From: an uncultured Opitutales bacterium
GTDB taxonomy: Bacteria; Verrucomicrobiota; Verrucomicrobiia; Opitutales; Seribacteraceae
Direction: 5' to 3'
DNA: 32,066 nt
Assembly: GCA_905478775.1 (NCBI GenBank)
Contig: CAJQKB010000079.1
Coordinates: forward strand, 1 to 32,066
Translations under genes and position numbers: made by a program
The notes under the pieces: model-generated
Told to the model about the DNA's origin: nothing
Databases searched by the model: none
Seen by the model: the letters and a program-made list of their open reading frames with translations, nothing else
Shown here: positions 6,554 through 29,530 of the stretch, in pieces
Numbering within the stretch: the first letter of the stretch is position 1
How the letters are laid out: each line of letters opens with the position of its first letter

Positions 6554-7570
6554 ATGAAAAAAGCACTCGTTACTGGTATCACTGGTCAAGATGGTTCTTA
6601 TTTGGCAGAATTCCTATTAGATAAAGGATATGAAGTACATGGAATAGTACGGCGTGCCTCTTCCTTTAATACTTCTCGTCTTGATCATTTGTATAAAGAC
6701 CCACTTGTTGATGACACCAAGTTATTTTTACATTACGGAGACTTAGCAGATGCAGTTCAGCTGGTAAAGTTACTCTACAAGCTACAACCGGATGAGATTT
6801 ATAATTTAGGTGCCCAAAGTCATGTGCGAGTTTCATTCGATATTCCCGAGTATACCGGTGATGTGACAGGAGTAGGTGCAGTACGTATTTTAGAGGCAAT
6901 TCGAGAAGCGGGTCTGGTTAATAAGGTTCGGTATTATCAAGCATCCTCTTCCGAGATGTATGGTAAGGTACAGGAGGTTCCCCAGGTTGAGACTACCCCA
7001 TTTTGGCCAAGATCTCCCTATGCATGTGCAAAAATGTATGCGCATTGGCTCACGGTAAATTATCGAGAATCTTATGGTTTACATGCAAGTAGTGGAATTT
7101 TATTCAACCATGAATCACCACGAAGGGGTGAAACATTTGTTACCCGAAAAATTACCCGTGCGGCAACTCGTATCAAGTTAGGGTTGCAAAACAAATTAAT
7201 TCTTGGAAATCTCGACTCGAAAAGAGATTGGGGATATGCGAAGGAGTATGTTGAAGCGATGTGGTTGATGCTTCAACAGGACGAGCCAGATGATTATGTA
7301 ATCGCGACTAATGAAACCCATACCGTTCGTGAATTCTTGGAAGAAACTTTTTCCTGCCTCGATTTAGATTACAATGAATTTGTGGGCTTCGATCAGAAAT
7401 ATGAACGTCCTGCAGAGGTGGATCTTTTAATTGGGGACGCAAGCAAGGCGGAGAATAAGTTGGGTTGGAAACCTAAGGTAAACTTTAAGGAACTTGTTTC
7501 TATCATGGTGGATGCGGATATGAAACTTGCTTTGCAGGAAAAAGCTTTATCCGAGGCAAATCTTAGTTGA
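6554..7570 (+). CDS. gmd: GDP-mannose 4,6-dehydratase
   Basis: It converts GDP-D-mannose to GDP-4-keto-6-deoxy-mannose, the first step towards GDP-L-fucose and other GDP-6-deoxyhexoses. The 338-residue protein is a complete short-chain dehydrogenase/reductase of the Gmd type: Rossmann motif [12 protein letters not shown] near the N-terminus, SSEMYG near residue 130, the catalytic YACAK with Tyr156 and Lys160, and the family block [17 protein letters not shown]. Its length is near that of bacterial Gmd (about 340-370). The next gene, GDP-L-fucose synthase, starts in the sequence TGATG, sharing one base with this stop, so the two are translationally coupled and supply GDP-fucose for surface glycans. 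No SD sequence precedes its ATG. Confidence 0.97.
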
Positions 7571-8511
7571 TGAAAAAGGTTTTCGTTAGTGGACACAACG
7601 GAATGGTTGGTTCTGCTCTAATTCGTGCATTTAATTCCCGTGTGGAAGAGTACGAGATAATTACCCGTAATCGAACGAAACTTGATCTTTGTAACCAACG
7701 GGATGTTCATCATTTTCTTTCTTCAGAAAAACCAGATATCGTGATTAACGCGGCGGGTCGGGTTGGCGGAATCTATGCAAACAATACCTTTCCAGCAGAC
7801 TTTATTCGTGAAAATTTACTGATCAATACAAATTTAATACATGCTTCATACGAAGTGGGAGTAACTCGTTTTTTAAATTTGGGTAGTTCCTGTATTTACC
7901 CTCGAGAGGCAGAACAGCCTTTGAAGGAAGAATCACTGCTAACGGGTCCATTAGAGCCTACAAATTCGGCTTATGCTTTGGCAAAAATTGCCGGTTTAGA
8001 GATGTGTAGGCATTATCGAAAGCAATACGGAGTGTTGTTTCATTCTGCGATGCCCACTAATTTGTATGGACCAGGAGATAATTATCATGCACAAAATTCC
8101 CATGTTCTTCCTGCCCTTATTAGGCGGTTCCATGAGGCAAAAAAAACGGGGCAATCTGAAGTGTGTATTTGGGGGACGGGAAAACCAAGGCGAGAACTTT
8201 TACATGCAGATGATTTGGCAGATGCATTATTATTTTTATTGTCTGTCGATAATCCGCCCGATTGGATAAATGTCGGAACCGGAAGGGATCAAACCATTTT
8301 GGAATTGGCAAACTTGGTCAAGGACACAACTGGATTTGTCGGTGAAATTACGCATGATCTAACCAAGGAGGACGGAACACCAGTCAAGAGGTTAGATGTT
8401 TCATTACTTGATAACCTTGGATGGAAAGCAAGAATATCCCTTGAACAAGGACTAAAAAGCACATACGGCGACTTTTTACGATGTGAAGAGAATAACTCTT
8501 TGCGAATTTGA
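7570..8511 (+). CDS. fcl: GDP-L-fucose synthase
   Basis: This is the epimerase-reductase that turns the Gmd product into GDP-L-fucose using NADPH. The 313-residue protein shows the Rossmann motif GHNGMVGSAL, SSCIYP, the catalytic YALAK with Tyr135 and Lys139, PTNLYGPGDNYH and the C-terminal RRELLHADDLADA, all typical of Fcl/WcaG. ATG 7570 overlaps the last base of the gmd stop; a TTG one codon earlier is a less likely start. It ends 11 bases before the convergent YceH-like gene. With gmd it forms a two-gene nucleotide-sugar operon. The glycosyltransferase using the fucose is not adjacent, though two glycosyltransferases lie at the far end of the window. Confidence 0.96.
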   Translation: MKKVFVSGHNGMVGSALIRAFNSRVEEYEIITRNRTKLDLCNQRDVHHFLSSEKPDIVINAAGRVGGIYANNTFPADFIRENLLINTNLIHASYEVGVTRFLNLGSSCIYPREAEQPLKEESLLTGPLEPTNSAYALAKIAGLEMCRHYRKQYGVLFHSAMPTNLYGPGDNYHAQNSHVLPALIRRFHEAKKTGQSEVCIWGTGKPRRELLHADDLADALLFLLSVDNPPDWINVGTGRDQTILELANLVKDTTGFVGEITHDLTKEDGTPVKRLDVSLLDNLGWKARISLEQGLKSTYGDFLRCEENNSLRI

Positions 8512-8522
8512 ATAAAAATTAA

Positions 8523-9227
8523 TTATTCGAATTGTTTTCGGAAATGTTTAAATTCATCCGATAATTCTCTCAATTGATAACGAAGGGTTTCCACTTCGTC
8601 TTTTAATTCGGTAAATTCCTTTGTCATTTCTTCGACCTGATCAATTCGTTTATCGGGTCCCGGTACATACACTGCAACTCCATCATTCAATTCCTCAATT
8701 ACAGGTTTGGGGGCCAATTTATGGAATCTACGTTGTTCTTTTTGTCCGGGAGATGGATCCATTATACCAATAAGGGAAGGATCTCGATCCATCAATTCTT
8801 GAAGAGTCTCCTCGACATCAGAAATCCCATCAAACGAAAACATTCGACTTGCCCGATTATTCAATTCGCCAGTTGTTTGGGGTCCGCGATTAAGTAACTC
8901 AGCAAGAAGAGCTCGTTCCGGTTTAATTAAATCCAGTTCCTTCTCTGCATTGTGTTGGTATTTTGGTACGCGTGAACCTACAAGGTCAACACGATGCACT
9001 AGTCTTTTAATGCGAAGTTCTTCAATTATTTTTTTTACCTCATCTTCATCGAAGTCGGTTCGTGGTAATCGATTGTTTTTCTGATTACACGCATTAACCA
9101 AACCATTTAGACTCATTGGATAGTATTCTGGCGTAGTCAGTTCTTTTTCGATCAAGGAACCTAAAACGCGAGTCTCCTCAAAAGTTAGTTCAACCAATGT
9201 GTTATCTTCACTAATTGCTTCGTCCAT
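8523..9227 (-). CDS. YceH/DUF480 (UPF0502) family protein
   Basis: The 234-residue product matches the DUF480 family: an N-terminal winged-helix unit with LTFEETRVLGSLIEKELTTP and PMSLNGLVNACNQKNNR, a second winged-helix-like unit with LLNRGPQTTGELNNRASRM, then a C-terminal coiled coil (EEMTKEFTELKDEVETLRYQ). The tandem winged helices suggest DNA or protein binding; the biological role in bacteria is unsettled. I chose ATG 9227 over a TTG three codons upstream. It lies downstream of L27 on the same strand, about 70 bases away, and faces fcl convergently. Confidence 0.9.
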   Translation of the reverse strand: MDEAISEDNTLVELTFEETRVLGSLIEKELTTPEYYPMSLNGLVNACNQKNNRLPRTDFDEDEVKKIIEELRIKRLVHRVDLVGSRVPKYQHNAEKELDLIKPERALLAELLNRGPQTTGELNNRASRMFSFDGISDVEETLQELMDRDPSLIGIMDPSPGQKEQRRFHKLAPKPVIEELNDGVAVYVPGPDKRIDQVEEMTKEFTELKDEVETLRYQLRELSDEFKHFRKQFE

Positions 9228-9267
9228 AGAAAACAAGTATAGGAAGATATTGAAAAACGAAAGACTT

Positions 9268-9287
9268 TAAAAGAGCTCGTTTGAGCT
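9268..9287 (-). terminator. Weak hairpin plus T-run after rpmA
   Basis: On the minus strand AGCTC-AAAC-GAGCT forms a 5-bp stem followed by CTTTT, shortly after the L27 stop. The short stem makes it a weak terminator candidate at best; the YceH-like gene could still be read through. Confidence 0.3.
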
Positions 9288-9296
9288 TAGAGGCCT

Positions 9297-9545
9297 TTAA
9301 TTATCAGAGACTATGTTAACCAAACGATGAGGCTTATCAAATTCAACCTTACCGGGGGTAAGAGCAAAAAGTGTGTGGTCGCGGCCCAATCCCACATTTT
9401 TGCCAGGATGGTATTTTGTGCCGCGTTGTCTTAAGATAATATTGCCAGCAACAACTGATTCGCCGCCAAACTTTTTAACGCCTAAGCGTTTGCTATTACT
9501 ATCTCTTCCATTTCTAGAAGTACCTTGTCCTTTTTTGTGTGCCAT
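9297..9545 (-). CDS. rpmA: 50S ribosomal protein L27
   Basis: L27 is a large-subunit protein whose N-terminal tail reaches the peptidyl-transferase centre. The 82-residue protein begins [16 protein letters not shown] and continues with [27 protein letters not shown] and [11 protein letters not shown], which is diagnostic. It starts directly with the mature AHKK sequence, so it lacks the cleavable N-terminal extension seen in Firmicutes. It follows rplU with an 18-base gap, the standard L21-L27 pair. The GTPase gene obg, which often follows rpmA, is absent here; a YceH-like gene follows instead. Confidence 0.98.
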
Positions 9546-9563
9546 ATTGGAATTCTCTTCTGT

Positions 9564-9881
9564 TTACTTTAAATCAATTGATTCGATTTGAACCACTGAA
9601 ATATGTTGGCGATGTCCTTTTCTTCTTTTGTAACCCTGCCTTCTTTTCTTTTTGAAAATAATTATTTTCTTATCCTTCTTATTCTCGAGAATCTTTGCTT
9701 TAACTGTAGCTCCTTCTACATTAGGAGTACCAAAGGTCGCTTTGCCTTCGTCTACAAGCATGAGAACTTGATCAATGCTTACTTGATCACCTTCGTTTGT
9801 GTCGGGGTAGCGATTTACGAAAAGTATATCGCCTTTTTGGACAGTAAATTGGCTGCCCTGTGTTTGAATAGTGGCTTTCAT
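9564..9881 (-). CDS. rplU: 50S ribosomal protein L21
   Basis: L21 binds 23S rRNA together with L20. The 105-residue product begins [18 protein letters not shown] and has the C-terminal basic block [16 protein letters not shown] characteristic of the family. The frame stays open for 22 more codons upstream, but the protein start aligned to the family is the ATG at 9881, so the longer reading is rejected. That start has no SD sequence (TTTCCTATC precedes it). It is the first gene of the rplU-rpmA pair. Confidence 0.97.
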
Positions 9882-9894
9882 GATAGGAAATGAG

Positions 9895-9925
9895 ATAATA
9901 AACCATTTAACTTTGAAATTGGCAA
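9895..9925 (-). promoter_or_regulatory. Low-confidence promoter candidate for rplU-rpmA
   Basis: The minus strand carries TTGCCA (9925-9920, five of six matches to the -35 consensus) and TATTAT (9900-9895, five of six to -10) with a 19-base spacer. It would leave a leader of only several bases, so the true start may use another site upstream. Confidence 0.22.
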
Positions 9926-9979
9926 GCGCCATCTTAGCTTTTCGCATATCGAAATATATGCATAATTAGAATTTATTTT

Positions 9980-10744
9980 ATGGAATTTGACAATCAGATG
10001 GTGGATGAAAAAGTAGTCCTTTCTTATTTTGAGAATAGGGGTGTTCTCGATCATTATGAAGAAGCGACCCGTAAAATTGGATTATGGGCATCTGAAGAAT
10101 TGATTTTTCGAAAATGTTTTCCAAGTCAAAATACGGAGATTTTAGAATTAGGCTGCGGGGTAGGGAGGATAAGTTTTTCTTTATGGATGCTTGGATATGA
10201 AAAGTTAACGGCCAGTGATGTTTCCAGTAAAATGGTGAAACGTGCTTTGAGCATACAAAAAGAAAGAAATAGTCGAATCAATTTTCTTACTGCTGATGCA
10301 ACTCAATTATCATTTGCAAGTAATTCATTTAATGGAGTTATTTTCGGGTTTAATGGATTAATGCAAATTCCACACCGAACGAATCGAAAAAAAGCGATAC
10401 AGGAATGTTTTCGAATACTTAGGCCAAATGGAAGGTTTGTTTTTACTTCTCATGATCGTTCCCTTCCGAAATGGAAAAAATTTTGGGCGAACGAGCGAAA
10501 AAAATGGAGGATTGGATTACAAGATAAAGCCCTTGTCGAATTTGGAGATCGGTATGGGGAAACTCCGAATGGAAAATTATTTATTCATGTTCCAGACTGT
10601 TCAGATGTACGAAAAGACTTAAAAGATGCGGGTTTTTTATTGGAGCGCGATGTATTGCGATCCCGTATTTCTGAAGAATCTAAGAGAGTCCAGGACTTTT
10701 CAGATGAATGTCGATTTTGGATCGCCCGTAAACCTGACCTTTAG
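9980..10744 (+). CDS. Class I SAM-dependent methyltransferase, substrate unknown
   Basis: The 254-residue protein has the class I methyltransferase fold: motif I ILELGCGVGRISFSL near residue 54, an acidic loop residue after the second strand (TASDVSSKMV), motif around NFLTADATQLSFASNSFN, and CFRILRPNGRFVFTSHD as the post-motif strand. These bind S-adenosylmethionine. The variable C-terminal part, with KKWRIG and the FSDECRFWIARK tail, does not identify the substrate. It sits alone on the plus strand between the divergent L21 gene and the convergent dapF-like gene (12-base gap), so context gives no clue. No SD sequence. Confidence 0.85.
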   Translation: MEFDNQMVDEKVVLSYFENRGVLDHYEEATRKIGLWASEELIFRKCFPSQNTEILELGCGVGRISFSLWMLGYEKLTASDVSSKMVKRALSIQKERNSRINFLTADATQLSFASNSFNGVIFGFNGLMQIPHRTNRKKAIQECFRILRPNGRFVFTSHDRSLPKWKKFWANERKKWRIGLQDKALVEFGDRYGETPNGKLFIHVPDCSDVRKDLKDAGFLLERDVLRSRISEESKRVQDFSDECRFWIARKPDL

Positions 10745-10756
10745 AACTTAGTTACC

Positions 10757-11605
10757 TTAGCTGACTTCAAGGCATTCTTTGTCCAACTCCATCGTTGCTA
10801 CACGAGTCGCTGGGCCAGTCATTTGAACATTGAATTCATCATCGATGAGCAGACCAATTTCTCCTCCTGGCATTTCAACGGTAATATTTTCATCACATGC
10901 CCCCATTTTCCGTGCTACTGCACCTGCCGCCGAACTGCTACTTCCTGAAGCCAGGGTATAGCCTGCACCGCGTTCCCAGATTTCAATTTTGATCCGATTA
11001 CGATTAATGATCTGTAAAAATTGAACATTAGTACGGTTTGGAAAATTGGAATGATTTTCTAACCCCGAACCCAATTCCATTGCCAGTGCTTGATTTGCAT
11101 TCTCCACAGGAATAACACAGTGTGGATTCCCGATTGTAGCGGCATAATATTGTAAGCTTTTGCCATTTACTTCAATTATTTCATCACAAACTTCTCTTGA
11201 ATTACCCTGCACATTAACCGGAATTTTATCGCTATGAAAACTTACTTTCCCCATTTCAACAATTATGACCGATTTATCTTCTGATACCTGACAAGATACG
11301 ATTCCACCCAATGTCTCGACTTGAAAGGGTTGTGTGGACACTTTTTTAATATCCCGTAAATATCTCGCAAATATTCTCAGTCCATTCCCACTCTTTTCAG
11401 CTTCACTTCCATCCGGGTTTAGAATTCTTAGCTTATAATCTGCCCGGTCTGACTTTGTAGGTCCGAGTAGAATCCCATCGGAGCCTAGACCAAAATTACG
11501 GTGGCATATCCGGATGATTTCCTTTTCCGAAAATGTGATGTCTTTTCCCTTGGGGTCAAAAACGAGATAATCATTTCCTAGAGCGTGATATTTTTCGAAT
11601 TCCAT
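10757..11605 (-). CDS. Diaminopimelate epimerase-family protein lacking both catalytic cysteines
   Basis: DapF interconverts LL- and meso-diaminopimelate with two cysteines. The 282-residue protein keeps the family frame: KYHALGNDYLVFD, RNFGLGSDGILLGP, LNPDGSEAEKSGNGLR, IGNPHCVI, FPNRTNVQF and ERGAGYTLASGSSSSAAG. The residue aligned with the first catalytic Cys is Ser72 (SGNG instead of CGNG) and with the second is Ser220 (ASGS instead of ACGT). Substrate-binding residues (Asn in HALGND, the GNG loop, ER) are kept. Either this is a variant subfamily with a different mechanism or substrate, or it is not a DAP epimerase. ATG 11605 gives the family N-terminus; a TTG at 11614 is rejected. The DUF5069 gene starts upstream, 18 bases away. 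Confidence 0.85.
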   Translation of the reverse strand: MEFEKYHALGNDYLVFDPKGKDITFSEKEIIRICHRNFGLGSDGILLGPTKSDRADYKLRILNPDGSEAEKSGNGLRIFARYLRDIKKVSTQPFQVETLGGIVSCQVSEDKSVIIVEMGKVSFHSDKIPVNVQGNSREVCDEIIEVNGKSLQYYAATIGNPHCVIPVENANQALAMELGSGLENHSNFPNRTNVQFLQIINRNRIKIEIWERGAGYTLASGSSSSAAGAVARKMGACDENITVEMPGGEIGLLIDDEFNVQMTGPATRVATMELDKECLEVS

Positions 11606-11623
11606 AATAGGCAAAAATATTGT

Positions 11624-12160
11624 TTAGCAATTTGTTTGAGACGATTTAATTCTTTCCGAAACCCATTGAGCAATCAAATGATCTTCAGATTCAGATTTTC
11701 TAACAATACGCAAGAATTCTGCCGGATGGATGTCATTAGTCCCAAAGAATGCCCTGTCTCCCCCACAGCAAAACATTGTATCAAAGGGAAGTTCACCTCT
11801 CAATTTAGCTCTGGCTTTACCTATTACTCTTGGAAGCCAGGTGATACCATTCAACTTTTCGGTTTTGCCCGGAAGTGCCTTTGAATCGAGTTTCTCGAGC
11901 GAATGAATTCCTTTTTGTTCTTCAATAAAAAAATCTCTGCGTAAGTCATGAATAAGAAGAAAAGTACCAAGATCTGGAGTTCCTTCACATACCCAATCTT
12001 CAACATAATCAAAAATATCCATTTTATTGAGGCCAATTTTATTCAAAAATGGAAGATCATGCTGGATTGGAAAAGTATCGGCAGAAGTATTTCCATTACG
12101 GTATAGTTCTACTGCATTCTCCCAAATTCGAACTAATTCTTTTTGGTAATTAAAATTCAT
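11624..12160 (-). CDS. DUF5069 domain-containing protein
   Basis: The 178-residue protein matches the DUF5069 type common in Verrucomicrobiota and related phyla: an N-terminal half with LVRIWENAVELYRNGN and FDYVEDWVCEGTPDLGTFLLI, then the DUF5069 core LPGKTEKLNGITWLPRVIGK, the ELPFDTMFCCGGDRAFF stretch, and a helical C-terminus. The function is unknown. A Cys-Cys-Gly-Gly-Asp run near residue 130 could be structural or metal-linked, but that is speculation. ATG 12160 is preferred over a TTG one codon earlier. It lies between the RNase R gene and the DapF-like gene in one strand run and may be co-transcribed with both. Confidence 0.8.
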   Translation of the reverse strand: MNFNYQKELVRIWENAVELYRNGNTSADTFPIQHDLPFLNKIGLNKMDIFDYVEDWVCEGTPDLGTFLLIHDLRRDFFIEEQKGIHSLEKLDSKALPGKTEKLNGITWLPRVIGKARAKLRGELPFDTMFCCGGDRAFFGTNDIHPAEFLRIVRKSESEDHLIAQWVSERIKSSQTNC

Positions 12161-12196
12161 CAAGAAGTGATCGAAAAACTTCAGGCAACTGTCAAC

Positions 12197-14227
12197 CTAA
12201 GATGTTTTTGCGAGTCGAAAATCGAGTTGCTTGTCCGATACAAAAACTTTGTCAATATGAACGCTGATTTCTTGGCCAAGCTTTAATTGAATCTTTGCAT
12301 TCCTTGCGACGAGCGAAGTGCCATTGGAAGAGACTCGGTAACCCAGTTCACGGGGAAGTGTACGAATCGGTACGAATCCGCGTGCGAGGGTGTCAATCAG
12401 TTCAATAAAGAATCCTCTTCTGGAAATCTCAGTAATAATTGCTCGATGTGACGGTGCAGGTCTTTTTCCAATATCTCTTTTGTAGTACAGTAATAGTTTA
12501 TCTTTTACTGATTCCCTCTCTGCATCCACGCTATTTCGTTCGGTTATGGACAAATGCTTTGCCGTTCCTTCCAGTCGAGCGTGGTCTATTTTCTTTCTCT
12601 TATTTCCACGGACATGATCTTCAATAGTTCGATGAACAATCAAATCGGCATATCTACGAATGGGAGAAGTGAAATGAAGGTAATCATTTTTCGCCAGTCC
12701 ATAATGTCCATCGGGGGTACTCTTATAACAAGCCTGCTTTAAACTTCTTAAGAATTTAATTCGGAGAACCTGAGATAGTGGATGCTTATTCATTGCAGTA
12801 AGCATTTTAGTCACTTCCTTCCTTCCGGTTAGTTCACCGCATGAAATACCAAATACTTGTAGAAAGCCTCTTAATTCCTCTAAGTTTTCCGGATCTGGAT
12901 CTGGATGAACCCGAAAAACGCCCGGTAATTTTTGTTTTCGTAATTCAATTGCAAGCCGTTCGTTTGCTAAAAGCATAAACTCTTCAATCATGTGATGACT
13001 TTCATCACTTTCTGACTGTAAAATTTCTTCAGGTTCCCCCTTTTGATCGACTAAGATTTTGACCTCTGTTGATTCCAAATCGAGTGAACCTTTTTTCATC
13101 CGTTCGGCTCGGAGTACTCTTGCAATTGAAGCAATTTTACGAATATTTACCTGCAGGTCCTGAAGGAGATTATCAGGGAGTTCATTTAAGAGTTTTCCAG
13201 GGTTCCCAGAATAACGACTAGGGGGTGGCTTGGCAGATTTAATCTTTTCGAGTTCATCTTCCTTCAAAAATAGACTGGCTTGTTCATAGGTCAGTCTTTT
13301 ATCGCTTAGAATAACGGACTCAGTAATTTTTGAACGTACTACATTACCTTCTTTTGAGAAGACAAAGAAGACTGACTTAACCAATCTCTCTTCGCCCTCC
13401 ACTAAACTACAAATCCCACTTGATAAACGATGGGGCAGCATGGGAACGACTTCCCCCACTAAATAAGTTGAATTCCCTCTCCGATTGGCCTCACGATCCA
13501 GGGCACTGCCTTGTTTTACGTAATGAGAAACATCTGCAATGTGGACTCCGATTTCCCACTCACCATTTTGTAATTCCTTTACCGATAATGCATCGTCAAA
13601 ATCACGGGCATCCAGTGGATCAATCGTTAATGTGAAGATACTTCGGATATCTTTCCGATCGGTAAGATCTTCCTTTGAAACTTGATCGGGACAAGCTTTT
13701 GCTTCCTCCATTACCTTGTCTGGGAAATTTCCACTTAACCCATATTTTGCTAAAATTCCTTTATGATCAGTAAGTGGATCGTCGCTTGGTCCCAGTACCC
13801 GAAGGACCTTACACATAGGAATACGAGCCGGCGGGTCCCATCGCACAAATTGGGCTAATACTTTATCATGCTCAACCGCATTTCTTTGGTCTCCAAGAAT
13901 CTTAAAGGGAACAAAGAGCCTCGAATTTTCAGCTTGTACGAGTGAACGGCCAAGGTCCCTTCGCAAGTAACCTAGGAATTCAGTTGTTCCACGCTTGATG
14001 ATTTTCCTGACCTCGTAGCGAGCCTTGGAAGGTTTTCGATCTCTTTTTTTACGGTCAAATTTTTTCGTTTTGGGGGGCAGGACGGTAAGTTCAACTGTGT
14101 CTCCGTGAATTGCCGTACCAGAAGAACCTTTTGCGAGGGCAATGGGTTCGTCTTTTCCTTCTACAACAACTTTTGCTCGTCCTTGTTTCCCAAAATATAA
14201 AATGCCATGGACTTTTACTCGGCCCAC
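12197..14227 (-). CDS. rnr: Ribonuclease R / RNase II-family 3'-5' exoribonuclease
   Basis: This enzyme degrades structured RNA processively from the 3' end. The 676-residue protein has cold-shock/OB-type N-terminal domains (FLGYLRR, FVPFKI), the RNB catalytic core with TIDPLDARDFDDALS (Asp203, Asp209, Asp211, Asp212 as metal ligands), VHIADVSHYV, RRGNSTYLV with VPMLPHRLSSGICSL, FTSPIRRYADLIVHR, and a C-terminal S1 domain. It is shorter than E. coli RNase R (about 810) because it lacks the N-terminal helix-turn-helix region. The start is GTG 14227, since TAA lies in frame five codons upstream. No SD sequence. The downstream DUF5069 gene begins 36 bases after it. Confidence 0.93.
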   Translation of the reverse strand: MGRVKVHGILYFGKQGRAKVVVEGKDEPIALAKGSSGTAIHGDTVELTVLPPKTKKFDRKKRDRKPSKARYEVRKIIKRGTTEFLGYLRRDLGRSLVQAENSRLFVPFKILGDQRNAVEHDKVLAQFVRWDPPARIPMCKVLRVLGPSDDPLTDHKGILAKYGLSGNFPDKVMEEAKACPDQVSKEDLTDRKDIRSIFTLTIDPLDARDFDDALSVKELQNGEWEIGVHIADVSHYVKQGSALDREANRRGNSTYLVGEVVPMLPHRLSSGICSLVEGEERLVKSVFFVFSKEGNVVRSKITESVILSDKRLTYEQASLFLKEDELEKIKSAKPPPSRYSGNPGKLLNELPDNLLQDLQVNIRKIASIARVLRAERMKKGSLDLESTEVKILVDQKGEPEEILQSESDESHHMIEEFMLLANERLAIELRKQKLPGVFRVHPDPDPENLEELRGFLQVFGISCGELTGRKEVTKMLTAMNKHPLSQVLRIKFLRSLKQACYKSTPDGHYGLAKNDYLHFTSPIRRYADLIVHRTIEDHVRGNKRKKIDHARLEGTAKHLSITERNSVDAERESVKDKLLLYYKRDIGKRPAPSHRAIITEISRRGFFIELIDTLARGFVPIRTLPRELGYRVSSNGTSLVARNAKIQLKLGQEISVHIDKVFVSDKQLDFRLAKTS

Positions 14228-14269
14228 AGAGTTAAAATTTTAAAAAATTGATAAAATAAAGACTGATTC

Positions 14270-14989
14270 TTAATCCTTGGTCATTTCCCAGCCAATGGGA
14301 AGGGCGGCTGAGATGTCATTGGTCGATTCAGATTTTTTATCAGCACCATCTTCTTTGTTGATTGCTGCTGAAAAGACTCCGTTTTCATCTTTTCCTTTTG
14401 TATCGTCATACCAACGAATTGTACCGTCGCTAAAAAGTACATGACCCCCTTCACCTGCCCAAGGAGAATCCACATCCCAACTGTCTGAACCGGATTCGAG
14501 GCCTCTTGTCCAAATGATTGGGTATGCACCACTTTTTAAGTTTCGATTAAATTTTCTACTTTCTGCGTCATCACCGGGAATGGCAATAGTATACCCGATC
14601 GCATCTTTTACGCTATCAAGTTCTCCATACTCACTGGGGATTTGTGAGGGTGGTCCATCTCCACTATCGTCTTCGAGTAAGTCCCTGTACTTTTCATCAT
14701 CAGGAAGAAACCAAAGTTCAGGTCGGGTGTCATTGGTCTTTTTACGGTACCAAATTGCAAAGTCAGCTGAACTTTTCACATCATCATTCATCGGGAAGGA
14801 GAATTGGCTCTTGGTTACAAGAGACTCGTAGATAGTCTTTAAATTTTTCTGAGCAGCCGTTCTGCCTGCTGTACCAAACACATCGCCAAAACCGACAAAT
14901 GCAATCCCAGCAAGAATACCAATGATTGTGATGACTACGAGAAGTTCGATTAGGGTAAACCCTTTTTTCTTAGATTTTTTTACATTCAT
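14270..14989 (-). CDS. Type II secretion-like pseudopilin with an H-X9-DG-type C-terminus
   Basis: The 239-residue protein begins with a basic leader and KKKGFTLIELLVVITIIG, the class III prepilin signal: cleavage after Gly10, methylated Phe11, and Glu15 at the +5 position. The hydrophobic helix runs to about residue 33. The C-terminal GGHVLFSDGTIRWYDD matches the H-X9-DG-like ending of pseudopilins abundant in Planctomycetes and Verrucomicrobia. These proteins are found in many copies per genome, and their assembly role is not established. No secretion or pilus genes are adjacent: RNase R lies 42 bases downstream and glyA lies upstream on the same strand. No SD sequence. Confidence 0.88.
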   Translation of the reverse strand: MNVKKSKKKGFTLIELLVVITIIGILAGIAFVGFGDVFGTAGRTAAQKNLKTIYESLVTKSQFSFPMNDDVKSSADFAIWYRKKTNDTRPELWFLPDDEKYRDLLEDDSGDGPPSQIPSEYGELDSVKDAIGYTIAIPGDDAESRKFNRNLKSGAYPIIWTRGLESGSDSWDVDSPWAGEGGHVLFSDGTIRWYDDTKGKDENGVFSAAINKEDGADKKSESTNDISAALPIGWEMTKD

Positions 14990-15036
14990 GTTTTCGTGAT
15001 TCGGTTCGGTAAAATAAGCATAAATTAAACTACAAT

Positions 15037-16326
15037 TTAATATGGTAATGCAAAACCTTCACAGAGGGCAAGTGCCTTCTTTTGCGCCTCATTTAAAACA
15101 GAGGAGTCTTCCGGGTTGGAAAGAACATCAGAAATTATACTGGCAATCTCTTTCATTTCATTTTCCTTCATTCCCCGAGAAGTAACTGCGGGAGTTCCAA
15201 TGCGCAAGCCACTGGTTTGGAAAGGACTACGAGTTTCCCCAGGCACCGTATTTCGATTCAGGGTTACATTCGCTCCATCCAAAGCAATCTGAGCTTTCTT
15301 TCCTGTTAATTCCGGGTGTGATGGACGTAGGTCGAGTAGCATTAAATGATTATCGCTTCCACCACTCACTAAATGAAAACCCTTCGCACTTAATGCAGTA
15401 GCGAGAGAAGCAGAGTTATTAATCACTTGTTGTTGGTATTCTTGGAAGGAGGGTTTTGCTGCTTCCTTGAAACAAGTGGCTTTCGCCGCAATTACATGCA
15501 TGAGGGGACCCCCTTGATTACCAGGGAAGACGGCAGAGTCGATTGCCTTTCCGTATTCTTCTTTACACATAATGAGTCCCCCGCGTGGACCCCGGAGAGT
15601 TTTGTGGGTCGTTGTGGTAACAAAGTCAGCATGAGGAACGGGGGAGGGGTGCAACCCAGCGGCAACAAGACCAGCGATATGGGCAATATCCGCTAGCAGT
15701 AATGCCCCACATCCTTTTGCAATCGTACCCATTCTTTCAAAATCAATAATTCGGGGATAAGCCGATGCCCCTACGGTAATTAATTTGGGCTTTTCCCGAT
15801 TCGCAATTTCTTCAATTGAATCGTAATTAATGTAGCCCGTCTCTGGATTCACTCCGTAGTTAATTACCTCATAGAGCATACCGCTACAATTTTTGGGATG
15901 ACCATGAGTAAGATGACCACCATCTTGCAAGCTCATCGTTAAAATTTTGTCATTGGGTTGTAGCATGGCAAAATAAACGGCCGTATTTGCCTGACTACCC
16001 GAGTGAGGTTGTACATTTGCGTACTCAGCTCCAAAAAGAGATTTGGCACGTTCAATCGCAAGGGTCTCTGCAACATCGACATGTTCGCATCCACCATAAT
16101 ATCTTTTTCCCGGATATCCTTCCGCATACTTATTTGTTAGTACGCTTCCAGTTGCTTCTATAATTGCGGGCAGTGTGAAATTTTCCGATGCAATTAATTC
16201 GATGTGCGTGCGTTGTCTGATTTTTTCCTTTTCGATTGCTTGAAAAATTTCTGGATCAAGCTCTTTAAGGGAGGTGGGATCGAGAAAGGATGAGGATGAA
16301 GTGGATGCTGTTTCTGTATTGTACAT
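15037..16326 (-). CDS. glyA: Serine hydroxymethyltransferase
   Basis: This PLP enzyme interconverts serine and glycine, supplying one-carbon units to tetrahydrofolate. The 429-residue protein has the full SHMT set: [53 protein letters not shown], the PLP lysine in [12 protein letters not shown] (Lys242), [11 protein letters not shown] and the C-terminal [13 protein letters not shown]. Length agrees with bacterial GlyA (about 417-430). It lies 24 bases downstream of the phosphatase gene in a same-strand run that begins with purD; GlyA and PurD both handle glycine. No SD sequence. Confidence 0.98.
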
Positions 16327-16350
16327 GGTGAAAATAATAAACTTATGAAA

Positions 16351-16854
16351 TTAAAGAGTTTTCTCAACCCAGTTGAGAAGAGAGGGGAGTGCTTCTTTCA
16401 TTCGATCTCTACATTCCCTGTAGACTTCCATATCCTGACCATAGGGATCCGGTAACTCTTTTGATCCTTGATCGATGAATTCTCTCATCAGAAATATAGA
16501 TGTGCTTTCCGGCACTTCAAAATACATGTTGAGTAATGCACGGTGAGATTCTGTCATGCAAAAAATGGCCGAGGCATTCTCGAGGGTGGCACGGGTTAAT
16601 GCTGCACTTCGATGATCAGATATGTCCAAGTTCAATTCTTGGCATGCCTGTATCGAATTGTCAGATGCCTGGTCCCCATCCATTGCAGAGATACCGGCTG
16701 AAAAAACGCGCACCTTTTTTGTAATTTTTGACTTGGTCAAAGCATCTTCAAATAATTTTTCCGCCATTGGACTACGACAAACATTAGCAGTACATACAAA
16801 TACAACTAGTTTTTCTTGCTTACGTTCCTTTTTCTCTCGGCTTTTTTTTCCCAT
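16351..16854 (-). CDS. Low-molecular-weight protein-tyrosine-phosphatase-like protein
   Basis: The 167-residue protein carries the LMW-PTP loop VCTANVCRSPMAE with nucleophile Cys21 and Arg27, the second family Ser, and the late DPYG with its general-acid Asp. Such phosphatases dephosphorylate tyrosine kinases of capsule or exopolysaccharide synthesis (Wzb type) or act in unknown roles; the partner is not visible here. The N-terminus has an unusual very basic extension (KKSREKKERKQEK) of about 13 residues before the first strand. It lies between purD and glyA on the same strand. No tyrosine kinase gene was seen in the window. Confidence 0.88.
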   Translation of the reverse strand: MGKKSREKKERKQEKLVVFVCTANVCRSPMAEKLFEDALTKSKITKKVRVFSAGISAMDGDQASDNSIQACQELNLDISDHRSAALTRATLENASAIFCMTESHRALLNMYFEVPESTSIFLMREFIDQGSKELPDPYGQDMEVYRECRDRMKEALPSLLNWVEKTL

Positions 16855-16908
16855 GTTCGAATATCACTTTTTCTCGATCTTCCGACAAAAAGGCAAGATT
16901 GAATCAAT

Positions 16909-18180
16909 TTATGTTCTAGAAAATTCTTTATGTCCAATGTCCTTACGAAAATATTTTGAGGTAAAATGAATCTTTTCACATAATTCGTATGCTCGATCTC
17001 TTGCCTGTTCTAAACTTTCCCCCCATCCCACTGCTCCGAGCACTCTTCCCCCTGCACTCACGATTTCTTGTTTTTCATTTAATTGGGTCCCGGCATGAAT
17101 AATTTGACTATCCTCCGAAGAAAGTTCGGGTTGTTGGATTACCTCTCCCTTAGGATAACTTTCCGGATAGCCTTTGCTTGCAAGAACAACAATCATTGCC
17201 GATTGATTTTTAATTGCCAACTTGGATGGTAAAGTACCTCCTTTTGCAGATTGAATTAAAACAGGAACAAGGTCTTCTTGCACTAATGGAAGAATTACCT
17301 GAGTTTCAGGATCTCCAAACCGCACATTAAATTCAAGTACTTTGGCACCATTGGAGGTAAGCATTAAGCCAATGTATAATGTGCCTCGGAAATCGATTCC
17401 ATCTGCTTTTAGTCCCTTCAGGGTGGGGATAACTATCGAATTTTCGTACTCTATTAACATTTCATCAGTTACCAACTTGGTTGGTGCATACGCCCCCATA
17501 CCTCCGGTATTTAAACCAGTATCACCTTCTCCTACTTTTTTATGATCTTGGCTGATCGGAAGGGTGACATAATTCTCACCTGAACAGATTAAATGGAGCG
17601 AAGCCTCCTCCCCTTCTAAAAACTCCTCAATTACAACCTCTCGTCCACTATCTCCAAAACTGGCGCCGTCCAGCATATCCTGGACGGCAAATTCTGCCTC
17701 TTTCAGGGTAGAACAAATTAATACTCCCTTTCCTGCTGCTAATCCACTTGCTTTTACTACAACCGGAAGTGAACAGGTGGATAGATATTCAAGTGCGGGT
17801 TGAATCTCGCTAAAATTCCCGTAGGAGGCAGTGGGTATGCCATGTTTAGCAAGAAAATCTTTGGAAAATGCCTTGCTCCCTTCCAATCGGGCTGCTTCTT
17901 TATTGGGTCCGTAAGCTAATATACCCTCCGATGCCAATGTAGTGACTGCACCATTACATAGAGGAACTTCCGGGCCAATGATTACAAAGTCTACCTCTTC
18001 CTGTTTCGCCAAAGTTACAATTTGATCATTTTTTTCGACATCGAGAGGGAAAGTAAGAAATTCTTTAGTTATTCCACCATTGCCCGGGGCAACAATGACT
18101 TTATCGACTAATGGACTATTCGAACACACTTTTGCCAGTGTGTGCTCCCTTCCTCCGCTTCCAATAACAAGAATTTTCAT
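16909..18180 (-). CDS. purD: Phosphoribosylamine--glycine ligase
   Basis: This second step of purine synthesis joins phosphoribosylamine and glycine with ATP. The 423-residue protein has the PurD N-terminal MKILVIGSGGREHTLA, the dinucleotide-like PGNGG, VIIGPEVPL, the ATP-grasp KASGLAAGKGVLIC and the late LEFNVRFGDPETQV, which is diagnostic. The length is typical (about 425). I chose the ATG at 18180, which has an SD-like AGGAAG five bases upstream (18191-18186); an in-frame start six codons earlier is rejected. It is the first gene of a same-strand run with the phosphatase, glyA and the pseudopilin. Confidence 0.97.
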   Translation of the reverse strand: MKILVIGSGGREHTLAKVCSNSPLVDKVIVAPGNGGITKEFLTFPLDVEKNDQIVTLAKQEEVDFVIIGPEVPLCNGAVTTLASEGILAYGPNKEAARLEGSKAFSKDFLAKHGIPTASYGNFSEIQPALEYLSTCSLPVVVKASGLAAGKGVLICSTLKEAEFAVQDMLDGASFGDSGREVVIEEFLEGEEASLHLICSGENYVTLPISQDHKKVGEGDTGLNTGGMGAYAPTKLVTDEMLIEYENSIVIPTLKGLKADGIDFRGTLYIGLMLTSNGAKVLEFNVRFGDPETQVILPLVQEDLVPVLIQSAKGGTLPSKLAIKNQSAMIVVLASKGYPESYPKGEVIQQPELSSEDSQIIHAGTQLNEKQEIVSAGGRVLGAVGWGESLEQARDRAYELCEKIHFTSKYFRKDIGHKEFSRT

Positions 18181-18185
18181 ATTTT

Positions 18186-18191
18186 CTTCCT
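18186..18191 (-). promoter_or_regulatory. Shine-Dalgarno sequence of purD
   Basis: AGGAAG reads on the minus strand five bases before the ATG at 18180. It is one of the few clear SD sequences in the window and decides the purD start. Confidence 0.6.
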
Positions 18192-18307
18192 TCATCACTA
18201 ACCGATCTCCTTAAAAGTAGACAATAAGTCGAGGCAATTTTATTTTTGTGAAGAACTAAATGTGGATTTTGCTTCCCCTTCGGTCAAAATTTGCCTACTC
18301 GGATGGT

Positions 18308-19762
18308 ATGCGGGTATTTTTTATTGGTATTGGTGGAACGGCGATGGGAAACGCGGCGATTTTACTCAAAAAACAGGGTCACGAGATAGCAGGATCTGAT
18401 CTTGGAGTATATCCCCCTATGTCGGACGTTCTTGCGAACGCCGGAATTGAGTTGTTTGAGGGATTTGATCAGCAGGTTATGAATTCGTGGAATCCGGACC
18501 GGGTGGTCGTCGGCAATGCAGTTTCTCGAGGAAACGAACAGGTCGAGTTTATTTTGAGTACTCGAAAGTTTCCTTATGTTTCTCTCCCTCAACTGATCGG
18601 TGAAGATTTAATCAAGTCGAGACCATGCTTGGTGGTTGCCGGTACTCATGGGAAAACAACGACAACTTCTCTGTCTGCGTTTGCATTGGAGCAGATTGGT
18701 TTATCTCCGGGATATTTAGTAGGTGGGGTTCCATTGGATTTGCCCTCTGGAAATGAACTGGGAGCGCTGGGGTCACCATTTGTAATTGAGGGAGATGAAT
18801 ACGATTCTGCTTTTTTTGATAAAAGAAGTAAATTTATTCATTATCGCCCCCGTATCTTAATTTTAAATAACTTAGAATTTGATCACGGAGATATTTTTAG
18901 GGATTTAGAAGATATTTCCCGAAGTTTTTCCCATCTTCTCCGAATTGTGCCATCCAATGGATTTGTGCTTCGAAATGGAGATGACATGAACATTATTTCT
19001 TTGCCCAACGCTCCATGGTGCACGACATTTTCAGTCGGTACAGGGGACCGAAATGATCTACAAATTAAAAATTTTGCCGAAAACAAAGACGGTACGAAAT
19101 TTGAACTTTTTTGGCAGGGCGAAAAGATTTGTTCCATTGATTGGCAAATGCCAGGAGAATATAATGCCCGAAATTTAGCGATGTCATTTTTGAGCTCCGT
19201 ATTGACTCAAGCCATTTGCGAGGGAAAGGAAATCCTCCGAACTAATCCATTTTCCGGTTTTAAATTACCTGATTATTCATCGTGTAAGGGCGTGAAGCGT
19301 AGGCAGGAAATCTTGGTGGACCAAGACGAGTTTACGGTTATTTCAGACTTTGCTCATCACCCCACCGCGATTGCTGGTACATTAGAGTCGTTGCGGGCTA
19401 GGTGGGCCAATCGAAAGATCATCGCATGCTTTGAACCTCGAAGTAATACGGCAGTAACCAATATTTTTCAGGATCGTTTTGCGGATTCATTATCTATCGC
19501 CGATGAGGTTCTGCTCGGTGCGGTTCATCGAGGCGACAAAATACCTGTTGCACAAAGGATTGATACACAAGCGATGATTGACAGGATTAAGAATTCAGGT
19601 CGAGAGGGGTGTTCTTTTTCGAAAAATTCTGACTTAGGAGATTATTTAAAATCAAAAAATAATCTGAATCAAGCGGTCCTAACTGTTTTCTTTTCCAACG
19701 GATCATTTGATGGAGAGATTGAAAAGTTTGTTCAATATGTTACCCCAAAGGATCTTTCATGA
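18308..19762 (+). CDS. mpl: Mpl-type Mur ligase (UDP-MurNAc:tripeptide ligase)
   Basis: Mpl attaches the recycled L-Ala-gamma-D-Glu-meso-DAP tripeptide to UDP-MurNAc, so it serves peptidoglycan recycling in the cytoplasm. The 484-residue protein has the Mur N-terminal GIGGTAMGNAA, the Mpl block YPPMSDVLANAGIELFEGFD and VVGNAVSRGNEQVE, the ATP loop GTHGKTTT (residues 112-119), IEGDEYDSAFFDKRSKFIHY, and LILNNLEFDHGDIF, which separates Mpl from MurC. ATG 18308 is chosen because it leads directly into the Rossmann strand; an in-frame start at 18260 adds 16 unlike residues. It overlaps the next gene by ATGA. Its presence implies meso-DAP-containing peptidoglycan. Confidence 0.93.
   Translation: MRVFFIGIGGTAMGNAAILLKKQGHEIAGSDLGVYPPMSDVLANAGIELFEGFDQQVMNSWNPDRVVVGNAVSRGNEQVEFILSTRKFPYVSLPQLIGEDLIKSRPCLVVAGTHGKTTTTSLSAFALEQIGLSPGYLVGGVPLDLPSGNELGALGSPFVIEGDEYDSAFFDKRSKFIHYRPRILILNNLEFDHGDIFRDLEDISRSFSHLLRIVPSNGFVLRNGDDMNIISLPNAPWCTTFSVGTGDRNDLQIKNFAENKDGTKFELFWQGEKICSIDWQMPGEYNARNLAMSFLSSVLTQAICEGKEILRTNPFSGFKLPDYSSCKGVKRRQEILVDQDEFTVISDFAHHPTAIAGTLESLRARWANRKIIACFEPRSNTAVTNIFQDRFADSLSIADEVLLGAVHRGDKIPVAQRIDTQAMIDRIKNSGREGCSFSKNSDLGDYLKSKNNLNQAVLTVFFSNGSFDGEIEKFVQYVTPKDLS
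19747..19752 (+). promoter_or_regulatory. Shine-Dalgarno sequence of the HD-type gene
   Basis: AAAGGA lies six bases before the ATG at 19759, inside the end of mpl, and supports translational coupling through the ATGA overlap. Confidence 0.55.
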
Positions 19763-21277: not shown

Positions 21278-21325
21278 GCTTGGCAGTTGCTTTTTCCGTC
21301 CGACTTTTCCATTGATAATTTAGAT

Positions 21326-22312
21326 ATGGTAAGTGCATCTTCAAATTCAGGTGAGGGAGAAAGAAAGAAAAAAAATTCTTATACCCTAAAATTATCCAAT
21401 GAGCAAATGGACAAATTGGGGAATTCTTTAAAGTCCAGAGATTGGTCTACCCGTACTGTTCAATATGCCCGTTATGCATTCGATGGGGAATTGGTAAAGG
21501 TGGTTGTCTATGAAAGCGGTAAACTGGTTGTCCAGGGTAGAAAGACCGAGGATTTTGTGGCCAATATTCTTGAACCTGAGGTAACCGGAGAATTTTTACT
21601 CGGCTATGAGGAGGTGAATAACCCCGAATGGTTCGAACCGCATGCCGGGTTGGATGAAAGTGGAAAGGGAGATTTGTTCGGTCCGGTGGTCACGGCATGC
21701 GTTGTCGCTGATGGTGATATGGTCAGGGATTGGATGAATTCAGGTGTGAGAGACAGTAAGACAATCACAGATGGTGCGATTCTTAAAATGGCAAAGCAAA
21801 TTAAGGATACGAAGGGTGTCGTGGTCAAAGTGGCATATACCAATATGATCAAATACAATGAGTTGTACTTACAATTTGATAGTAATTTAAATAAATTCCT
21901 GGCTTGGTTACACGGTCGGTCTTTGAACGATGCCATTAAAGAAAGAAAACCATCCTGGGGTTTACTGGACCAGTTTACTAAACAACCACTCGTGCAGAAA
22001 TACGTGGAAGGGCAGGACTTTGATTTACAAATGCGAACCAAAGCGGAGGAGGACCCAGTTGTGGCAGCCGCGTCAATAATTGCCCGAGCAACTTGGTTGC
22101 AACAGATGAAAAAGCTTGGCGAATTAGCAGGGTGTGTTCTCCCCAAGGGTTCAGGGTCTCAGGCAAAGGAAAAAGCAACATCCCTCTACCAAAAGTGGGG
22201 GGAGGAACGAATGAAAGAGTTCTGTAAACTTCATTTTAAAACTGCTTATGAGGCTATGGGAAAGACTCCTCCCGCAAAGCCAAAGTGGAATTCAAAATGG
22301 CGAAAGGGGTAA
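21326..22312 (+). CDS. rnhC: Ribonuclease HIII
   Basis: It cleaves the RNA strand of RNA/DNA hybrids. The 328-residue protein has the RNase HIII N-terminal TBP-like domain (YTLKLSNEQMDKL to about residue 90) and then the RNase H fold with GLDESGKGDLFGPVVTACV (Asp110-Glu111-Ser112-Gly113-Lys114), GVRDSKTITD, VAAASIIARATWLQ and a basic C-terminus. The D-E-S-G-K-G form distinguishes HIII from HII (D-E-A-G-R-G). ATG 21326 is preferred over a TTG at 21287. rnhB follows after 18 bases, so both enzymes sit in one operon. Confidence 0.95.
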   Translation: MVSASSNSGEGERKKKNSYTLKLSNEQMDKLGNSLKSRDWSTRTVQYARYAFDGELVKVVVYESGKLVVQGRKTEDFVANILEPEVTGEFLLGYEEVNNPEWFEPHAGLDESGKGDLFGPVVTACVVADGDMVRDWMNSGVRDSKTITDGAILKMAKQIKDTKGVVVKVAYTNMIKYNELYLQFDSNLNKFLAWLHGRSLNDAIKERKPSWGLLDQFTKQPLVQKYVEGQDFDLQMRTKAEEDPVVAAASIIARATWLQQMKKLGELAGCVLPKGSGSQAKEKATSLYQKWGEERMKEFCKLHFKTAYEAMGKTPPAKPKWNSKWRKG

Positions 22313-22330
22313 GGCCTCATATTTGAAAAG

Positions 22331-23101
22331 ATGGTCAATCCACTATGGACTTTTGATCGGAAGCGAACGAAGGGATATCTGGGAATTATTGGGGTTGATG
22401 AGGCCGGCCGGGGCTGCCTCGCCGGGCCTGTAGTGGCGGGTGCTGTCTTGTTGAAAAATGATTTTTTTAAACATCGAGGAAATCGAAAGTCTTGCTCCAC
22501 GGTTAATGACTCTAAACAACTCAAAGAGAAGCAAAGAGAGGACCTATTTGAACAGATTCAAAAACTAGAGGAGAAGGGAGATCTGTTCTGGGCATTTGGG
22601 GAGGCTTCGGTCGAGGAAATCGAAGCCGAAAATATTGTCGGGGCTACCTGCCTCGCAATGAAGCGTGCAATGGAAAGGGTTTCCTTATCTTCAAAGGAAA
22701 TTTGGAAGCCGGATTTTAAATCAGAAAAAGATTTGTTTGCGGATGCAATGAGTCGGAAAGAAAACACATGGGTGGTAAGCGTGGATGGTCGTCCGATGAA
22801 AAAACTTCCTTTTCAACATGAGGGATTGATCAAAGGTGATACTTTTTCATTGGCTATTGCCATGGGTTCAATAGTGGCAAAAGTAACCCGTGATCGGTTT
22901 ATGAGAAAATTAGCGCTCGTTTATGAAGGGTATGATTTTGCCTCGAATAAGGGATATGGTTCTCCTAAGCATTTAGTAGGTCTACAGGAAAATGGTCCCT
23001 GTATTCACCATCGACCTCGATTTCTTAGGAAAATCTTAAATTGTGGAGCGGAGAAAAAATCAAATGAAGAAGATTCGCAAAGCCAGTTGAGTTTCTCGTA
23101 A
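22331..23101 (+). CDS. rnhB: Ribonuclease HII
   Basis: It removes single ribonucleotides misincorporated in DNA and also cleaves RNA/DNA hybrids. The 256-residue protein has GVDEAGRGCLAGPVVAGAVL (Asp23, Glu24), NDSKQLKEKQRE, the third acidic residue in SVDGRPMKK, AMGSIVAKVTRDR and NKGYGSPKHL, the HII family motifs. A charged insertion of about 20 residues (KSEKDLFADAMSRKENTW) precedes the VDG strand, and the C-terminal tail past RRPRFLRKI-like HHRPRF is acidic and not conserved. rnhC lies just upstream, and pdxJ begins 22 bases downstream. No SD sequence. Confidence 0.95.
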   Translation: MVNPLWTFDRKRTKGYLGIIGVDEAGRGCLAGPVVAGAVLLKNDFFKHRGNRKSCSTVNDSKQLKEKQREDLFEQIQKLEEKGDLFWAFGEASVEEIEAENIVGATCLAMKRAMERVSLSSKEIWKPDFKSEKDLFADAMSRKENTWVVSVDGRPMKKLPFQHEGLIKGDTFSLAIAMGSIVAKVTRDRFMRKLALVYEGYDFASNKGYGSPKHLVGLQENGPCIHHRPRFLRKILNCGAEKKSNEEDSQSQLSFS

Positions 23102-29435: not shown

Positions 29436-29472
29436 AAGATTTTCAAAATAAATAGTTTGTGGACATGATAAA

Positions 29473-29478
29473 TATAAT
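29473..29478 (+). promoter_or_regulatory. TATAAT -10-like element before the ACP-FabZ gene
   Basis: A perfect TATAAT lies 52 bases before the ATG at 29531, in an AT-rich stretch. No -35 match lies at a good distance. If used, transcription would start near 29485, which rules out the GTG at 29459 and supports the 29531 start. Confidence 0.3.
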
Positions 29479-29530
29479 TTTATATATACATTCTAGAAAT
29501 AATCACCCTAAAACATTTACCCCATTTGTT

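What the first reader, a model, noticed from the sequence alone, without database searches (positions are those of the whole stretch)
10757..11605. DapF homologue with both catalytic cysteines replaced by serine
The family scaffold and substrate-contact residues are intact (Asn in HALGND, GNG loop, ERGAG), yet Ser72 sits where the first catalytic Cys should be and Ser220 where the second should be. The canonical two-base thiol mechanism cannot operate, but mpl in the same window implies meso-DAP peptidoglycan. The protein may have a new substrate, a new mechanism, or be a second copy.
Basis: partly seen in the sequence, partly recalled or inferred. Interest (0 to 1): 0.6.

Follow-up and report, generated by a model that had tools for sequence, protein, structure and literature searches.

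The report
Diaminopimelate epimerase with serines for cysteines
A cell-wall and lysine enzyme that everywhere else relies on two reactive cysteines has serines in both places throughout a whole group of bacteria, in which it is nearly always the only enzyme able to do the job, so it probably runs the same reaction with a different pair of chemical groups.

Summary
The gene at 10757-11605 (-) is the only DapF-type gene in its genome. Both catalytic cysteine positions (E. coli Cys73/Cys217) are serine (codons AGT, TCA), while every substrate-contact position checked is kept. It is neither a sequencing error nor a pseudogene. All Opitutales DapFs sampled (over 60 distinct) except one are Ser/Ser, plus scattered relatives in other classes of the phylum and in two other phyla. 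Sister orders are Cys/Cys. On a tree built without the catalytic columns, Ser/Ser rows form one clade (100/100). None has reverted to Cys, although one base change would usually suffice. Nine further positions changed with them.

"New substrate" or "second copy" is not supported. The genome has DapL, MurE and a LysA-like enzyme, but no Ddh, the one known bypass. DapF-less relatives nearly all have Ddh (14 of 15); Ser/Ser genomes nearly all lack it (47 of 49). One Opitutales genome has swapped Ser/Ser for a Cys/Cys DapF. DapL, suggested as a substitute, makes LL-DAP and still needs DapF. Best reading: a working LL-DAP/meso-DAP epimerase with an oxygen-based Ser/Ser acid/base pair. Activity itself is untested. 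I found no report of such a DapF.

The parts
10757..11605 (-). dapF-type gene, 282 aa, Ser/Ser diaminopimelate epimerase homologue (TTG at 11614 is an alternative start)
11390..11392 (-). Ser72 codon AGT at the first catalytic position (E. coli Cys73), N-cap of predicted helix
10946..10948 (-). Ser220 codon TCA at the second catalytic position (E. coli Cys217), N-cap of predicted helix
11624..12163 (-). DUF5069 gene directly upstream, same strand; adjacent in the genus only
12197..14227 (-). RNase R-type exonuclease gene, same run of genes
18260..19762 (+). Mpl-like Mur ligase (367.6 bits, just below the mpl cut-off of 388.7); context for meso-DAP peptidoglycan

Best explanation
The gene encodes the organism's only diaminopimelate epimerase, converting LL-DAP (made by DapL) to meso-DAP for MurE/Mpl and LysA. 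It uses the ordinary DapF fold and substrate site, but the two proton-transferring side chains, one at the N-terminus of each central helix on either face of the alpha-carbon, are Ser72 and Ser220 instead of Cys. Inferred step: on domain closure one serine, stabilised by the helix dipole and a desolvated pocket, takes the alpha-proton as an alkoxide-like base while the other donates from the opposite face. The clade-wide co-changes (G48, K71, I78, Q195, E208, I209, usually Y216, S223; 282-aa numbering) probably tune the site for oxygen bases. Shown: sequence, conservation, single clade, sole copy, fold prediction, replacement pattern. Inferred: catalysis and the roles of the serines.
For: Only PF01678 gene in the genome. 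Single DapF in all 25 Opitutales genomes with a match, several of them finished chromosomes, and all examined are Ser/Ser. All substrate contacts kept. Clade 100/100 with the catalytic columns removed. AGY and TCN codons both used at Ser72, no reversion to Cys. pN/pS 0.14-0.24 among close relatives (synonymous sites saturated, so rough). DapL 554.7 bits, MurE over its 2,6-DAP equivalog cut-off with a DNPR motif. No Ddh in 30 Ser/Ser genomes, 2 of 12 more, 0 of 7 more. DapF-less genomes have Ddh in 14 of 15 (Fisher p 3.6e-11 without correction for kinship). G030 lacks the Ser/Ser gene and has a Cys/Cys DapF. Model pLDDT 91.8 with Ser at both helix starts; solved DapFs mostly at Z 33-36. Precedent for catalytic Ser in the same fold: 4-hydroxyproline epimerase with Ser/Cys (PMC4113996). 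DAP detected in Opitutus terrae and Lacunisphaera (PMC5303756).
Against: No activity has been measured. Cys-to-Ser mutants of related enzymes are greatly slowed (HisR C67S/C209S, PMC11602996). DAP in Opitutaceae is about ten times lower than in E. coli, its stereochemistry was not reported (PMC5303756), and O. terrae also has a Ddh. Same-genus genomes G016 and G019 (92% complete) show neither DapF nor true Ddh, probably assembly gaps. Fold matches do not separate DAP epimerase from O-ureidoserine racemase (Z 35.6).
Confidence: 0.72

Rival explanations
1. Weak or slow epimerase: the serines leave residual activity that suffices for slow-growing marine bacteria, with LL-DAP partly tolerated in the wall. 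The swap is then a tolerated decline and not an adapted mechanism.
For: Ser mutants of HisR keep only reduced turnover. DAP is low in Opitutaceae.
Against: No reversion to Cys in 77 aligned Ser/Ser proteins of two phyla, or in a further one from a third, though it usually takes one base change; many co-changed positions fixed at 99-100%. Fast-evolving small genomes (L031, L032) keep Ser/Ser.
Confidence: 0.13
2. Different proton-transfer groups: the catalytic base is not Ser but another clade-specific residue (for example Lys71 next to Ser72, or Tyr216 near Ser220), the serines only shaping the site.
For: K71, E208 and Y216 are near-invariant in Ser/Ser and absent in Cys/Cys proteins.
Against: Tyr216 is Asn in L201 and Phe in L224; Lys71 is Ile in L031; E208 is Ser in L180, whereas the two serines stay fixed. 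Side-chain geometry could not be measured here.
Confidence: 0.07
3. Same fold, different substrate (another amino acid racemase, or a dehydratase as in Ser/Thr members of the proline racemase family), with meso-DAP made by an unknown route.
For: Ser/Thr members of the superfamily are dehydratases (PMC4113996). HisR had been annotated as DapF.
Against: All DAP distal-site positions kept. Sole DapF with a complete DapL/MurE pathway. Replaced by Ddh or Cys/Cys DapF where lost.
Confidence: 0.05
4. Catalytically dead DapF kept for another role, such as the RppH-binding role known for E. coli DapF; the gene sits near an RNase R gene here.
For: E. coli RppH-DapF complexes exist (PDB 6d13). RNase R gene is two genes upstream.
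Against: The RNase R neighbourhood is limited to the genus. Leaves no source of meso-DAP. Substrate pocket fully conserved.
Confidence: 0.03

Closest known systems
Diaminopimelate epimerase DapF (TIGR00652, EC 5.1.1.7), Cys/Cys form
   Same: Homologous over the full length (241 bits, about 24-36% identity to solved DapFs), same two-domain fold, all substrate contacts, sole copy within a DAP pathway.
   Different: Both catalytic Cys are Ser, a third near-by conserved Cys (E. coli Cys79) is Ile, and a set of further positions is changed in the whole clade.
H. influenzae DapF mutants C73S and C217S (PDB 2q9h, 2q9j)
   Same: Single Cys-to-Ser changes at exactly these positions; Z 34.1 and 33.7 to the model.
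   Different: Laboratory single mutants made to slow catalysis, not a natural double replacement.
4-hydroxyproline 2-epimerase with Ser/Cys pair and trans-3-hydroxyproline dehydratase with Ser/Thr pair (proline racemase superfamily, PMC4113996)
   Same: Natural use of a catalytic Ser in place of Cys in the same fold, with retained two-base epimerisation for Ser/Cys.
   Different: Other family and substrate, about 14% identity; only one Cys lost in the epimerase, and the Ser/Thr form is a dehydratase.
meso-DAP dehydrogenase Ddh (TIGR01921)
   Same: Alternative source of meso-DAP; found in relatives that lack DapF.
   Different: Unrelated NADPH enzyme; absent from this genome.

Membership tests
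DapF (diaminopimelate epimerase) | Whole-length match above the TIGR00652 equivalog cut-off | tested here: met
   241.2 bits against 114.65
DapF (diaminopimelate epimerase) | Two catalytic cysteines (E. coli Cys73 and Cys217) | tested here: not met
   Ser at both; hence described as a Ser/Ser variant clade and not as a canonical DapF
DapF (diaminopimelate epimerase) | Substrate-contact residues Asn11, Asn64, Asn157, Asn190, Glu208, Arg209 and the helix N-terminal amides (Gly74, Asn75, Gly218, Ser/Thr219) | tested here: met
   All present in the window protein and nearly all clade members
DapF (diaminopimelate epimerase) | Two-domain DapF fold with the catalytic residues at the starts of two central helices | tested here: met
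   AlphaFold model pLDDT 91.8; helices begin right after both serines; most DapF chains at Z 33-36
DapF (diaminopimelate epimerase) | Genetic role as the source of meso-DAP | tested here: inconclusive
   Sole DapF, DapL and MurE present, no Ddh, reciprocal replacement in relatives; strong comparative evidence but no genetic test
DapF (diaminopimelate epimerase) | Epimerises LL-DAP to meso-DAP | not testable with these tools
   needs purified enzyme
Proline racemase family (Ser/Cys or Ser/Thr members) | Sequence membership in that family | tested here: not met
   Pfam gives only DAP_epimerase PF01678; structural identity to those entries 11-17%
Bifunctional DapF/glutamate racemase (NF038284) | Match above the family cut-off | tested here: not met
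   67.8 bits against 350

The most novel reading that the evidence does not exclude
A natural, thiol-free lineage of diaminopimelate epimerase that runs a full two-base alpha-proton transfer with two serine hydroxyls at near-normal rates. It would be insensitive to oxidation and to thiol-directed inhibitors, arose once, and spread across at least three phyla.
Probability: 0.55. Interest if true: 0.75.

Novelty: new variant of a known kind. Interest (0 to 1): 0.62.

Why it matters
Cofactor-independent racemases are explained by a thiol/thiolate pair that removes a proton with a pKa near 29. A group of organisms that appears to depend on a Ser/Ser version makes the need for sulfur directly testable in a natural enzyme. 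It also warns that residue-blind annotation calls these proteins ordinary DapF. A PROSITE-like C-containing pattern (recalled from memory) matched none of 77 Ser/Ser proteins, and the same pattern with Ser matched 76. Thiol-directed DapF inhibitors and redox control by disulfide (known for C. glutamicum DapF, PMC5296763) should not apply. It also bears on the old claim that subdivision 4 Verrucomicrobia lack DAP (reviewed in PMC5303756).

Tried and rejected
Sequencing error or pseudogene: rejected (same residues in all relatives; purifying selection). Second Cys/Cys copy: none. DapL as a bypass: present but makes LL-DAP, so not a bypass. A low-level TIGR01921 hit in the own genome (24.7 bits, profile positions 2-81 only) is far below the cut-off of 180.6 and not Ddh. 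Tyr216 as the replacement base: it varies to Asn and Phe. K71-E208 as a covarying pair: the two exceptions (L031, L180) each change one side only, so no support. Avoidance of Cys in general: Ser/Ser proteins still hold 5.2 Cys on average against 6.7. Plasmids: best matches of about 36% identity, so no close member of the clade. Literature searches for a Ser/Ser DapF found none; the library lacks most subscription papers. Side-chain distances could not be measured because model coordinates are not released to the scripts.

Full report
Observation. The gene at 10757-11605 (-) encodes 282 aa (the ORF listing start is a TTG nine bases upstream). It is a DapF homologue by TIGR00652 (241.2 bits, cut-off 114.65) and by Pfam PF01678 in both halves. 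The codons at the two catalytic positions are AGT (Ser72) and TCA (Ser220). Aligned with E. coli DapF taken from the MG1655 record they fall on Cys73 and Cys217, while N11, N64, G74, N75, N157, H159, N190, E208, R209, G218 and S219 are kept.

Conservation. The window lies in an Opitutales-type genome (Verrucomicrobiota by the record titles of its nearest relatives) of 2.78 Mb and 95% completeness, with a single PF01678 gene. Relatives down to 38-44% identity carry the same two serines. Over the phylum, 155 genomes were sampled with TIGR00652 and DapF was extracted from a broad selection. Of 162 distinct sequences, 85 are Cys/Cys, 72 Ser/Ser and one Cys/Ser; four are fragments. All same-order genomes examined are Ser/Ser except G030, which has a divergent Cys/Cys DapF; the other orders of the class are Cys/Cys. 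Ser/Ser also occurs outside the class (G058, G114, G118, G149), in 6 of 297 genomes of the phylum of a record titled Deltaproteobacteria bin85, and in 1 of 395 genomes sampled from the phylum of a Bacteroidetes record.

One origin. A maximum-likelihood tree without the two catalytic columns puts all Ser/Ser rows on one side of one branch with 100/100 support (105 rows). The result holds when members of the two other phyla are added (56 rows). The clade is nested with DapFs of other classes and phyla, not with the Cys/Cys DapFs of its own class, so transfer has probably played a part. Codons at Ser72 are AGY in 58 and TCN in 14; at Ser220 all are TCN. A single base change would restore Cys from AGY or TCY codons, yet no member has it. 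Pairwise pN/pS in the genus is 0.14-0.24, with synonymous sites saturated.

Co-changes. In 77 Ser/Ser against 89 Cys/Cys proteins, positions Gly48, Ile78 (always Cys in Cys/Cys proteins), Gln195, Ile209 and Ser223 (282-aa numbering) are invariant in the one set and essentially absent from the other. Pro49, Lys71, Glu208 and Tyr216 are at 76 of 77. Tyr216 becomes Asn or Phe in single members, Lys71 becomes Ile once and Glu208 Ser once, so none of these is likely to be the catalytic base by itself. The Bacteroidota member L224, aligned later, also lacks the Gly-Pro pair at 48-49.

Pathway. The genome has DapL (554.7 bits), MurE over a 2,6-diaminopimelate equivalog cut-off with a DNPR motif, a LysA-like protein below the LysA cut-off and an Mpl-like ligase in the window. 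DapL produces LL-DAP and therefore needs an epimerase; the only known route to meso-DAP without DapF is Ddh. Ddh is absent from all 38 nearest genomes, 30 of which carry Ser/Ser DapF. Of 12 further Ser/Ser genomes two have it (G134, G053), and of another seven none. In contrast 14 of the 15 DapF-less genomes of the phylum sample have a true Ddh, among them G184, from the same family as the Ser/Ser genome G137. The contrast of 2/49 with 14/15 gives Fisher p 3.6e-11, without correction for kinship; several of the 15 are of one genus and two different Ddh models were used. G030 shows the other kind of replacement: no Ser/Ser gene but a Cys/Cys DapF. These patterns are what one expects if the Ser/Ser protein does the DapF job.

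Structure. The AlphaFold model (29 sequences) has mean pLDDT 91.8 and pTM 0.86, with helices starting directly after each serine. The best solved matches are mostly DapFs (Z 33-36), including the C73S and C217S mutants 2q9h and 2q9j. O-ureidoserine racemase matches equally well, so the fold does not fix the substrate. The PDB sequences closest to the query are DapFs; the two alignments printed show Cys at both places.

Chemistry and precedent. Ser mutants of HisR are greatly slowed (PMC11602996). A natural 4-hydroxyproline epimerase with a Ser/Cys pair is active, and a natural Ser/Thr relative is a dehydratase (PMC4113996); an aspartate/glutamate racemase with Thr for one Cys is also known (PMC8142540). 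So one oxygen base is precedented; two in an epimerase were not found in the papers searched. In C. glutamicum the two cysteines can form a disulfide that acts as a redox switch (PMC5296763); a Ser/Ser enzyme cannot.

Physiology. Subdivision 4 Verrucomicrobia were once reported to lack DAP; GC/MS later found DAP in Opitutus terrae and Lacunisphaera, about ten times less than in E. coli, stereochemistry not reported (PMC5303756). The length of contig G134:C1 (5,957,605 bases) equals the published O. terrae genome size, so G134 is most likely O. terrae. It is Ser/Ser but also has Ddh, so it is not the clean test case; Ddh-free members are.

Verdict. The Ser/Ser replacement is real, ancient, fixed and shared by a clade in which it is the only DapF (one member, G149, has in addition a divergent paralogue with altered substrate residues). 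The most likely reading is a working DAP epimerase with an oxygen-based acid/base pair (0.72). Because a defining feature, the Cys pair, is not met, I call it a new variant clade of the DapF kind, not a canonical DapF. Catalysis is inferred, not shown.

Noticed in passing
L063:2683-3541 (Bacteroidetes MAG UBA9002; genome handle G192): A DapF with Cys at the first and Ser at the second catalytic position, a natural half-swap outside the Ser/Ser clade and the only DapF found in that genome.
   Followed up: partly
L188 (G030:C71): An Opitutales genome whose DapF is Cys/Cys and groups away from the Ser/Ser clade: apparent replacement of the Ser/Ser gene.
   Followed up: partly
L140 (G149) and L170 (G090): Second, divergent Cys/Cys DapF-like paralogues with altered substrate residues (ERG to EFG; ERG to ETG), likely with other substrates.
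   Followed up: no
L195 (G134) and L194 (G053): True Ddh (about 310 bits, TIGR01921) alongside Ser/Ser DapF in two Opitutales genomes, one of them most likely Opitutus terrae.
   Followed up: partly
L061 / L030 (UBA3151, G021:C78): The Ser/Ser dapF is split by an apparently in-frame insertion of roughly 100 codons between residues 111 and 131 of the query (open frame 394 aa); assembly artefact or real insert not resolved.
   Followed up: no
window 29459-30472 (+): Acyl carrier protein-like domain fused to a FabZ-type dehydratase domain in one protein; both score below the equivalog cut-offs.
   Followed up: no
window 21287-23101 (+): Two adjacent RNase HII-family genes, the first with a DUF3378 domain as in RNase HIII.
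   Followed up: no
L191 (G000:C156:23900-25300): The best LysA candidate scores 246 bits, below the LysA equivalog cut-off of 297.9, and this holds for nearly all the relatives: a divergent LysA group.
   Followed up: no
window 7567-18198: Gene order GDP-fucose synthase, DUF480, L21, methyltransferase, dapF, DUF5069, RNase R, pilin-like, SHMT, PurD is largely kept across the genus but not beyond it.
   Followed up: partly
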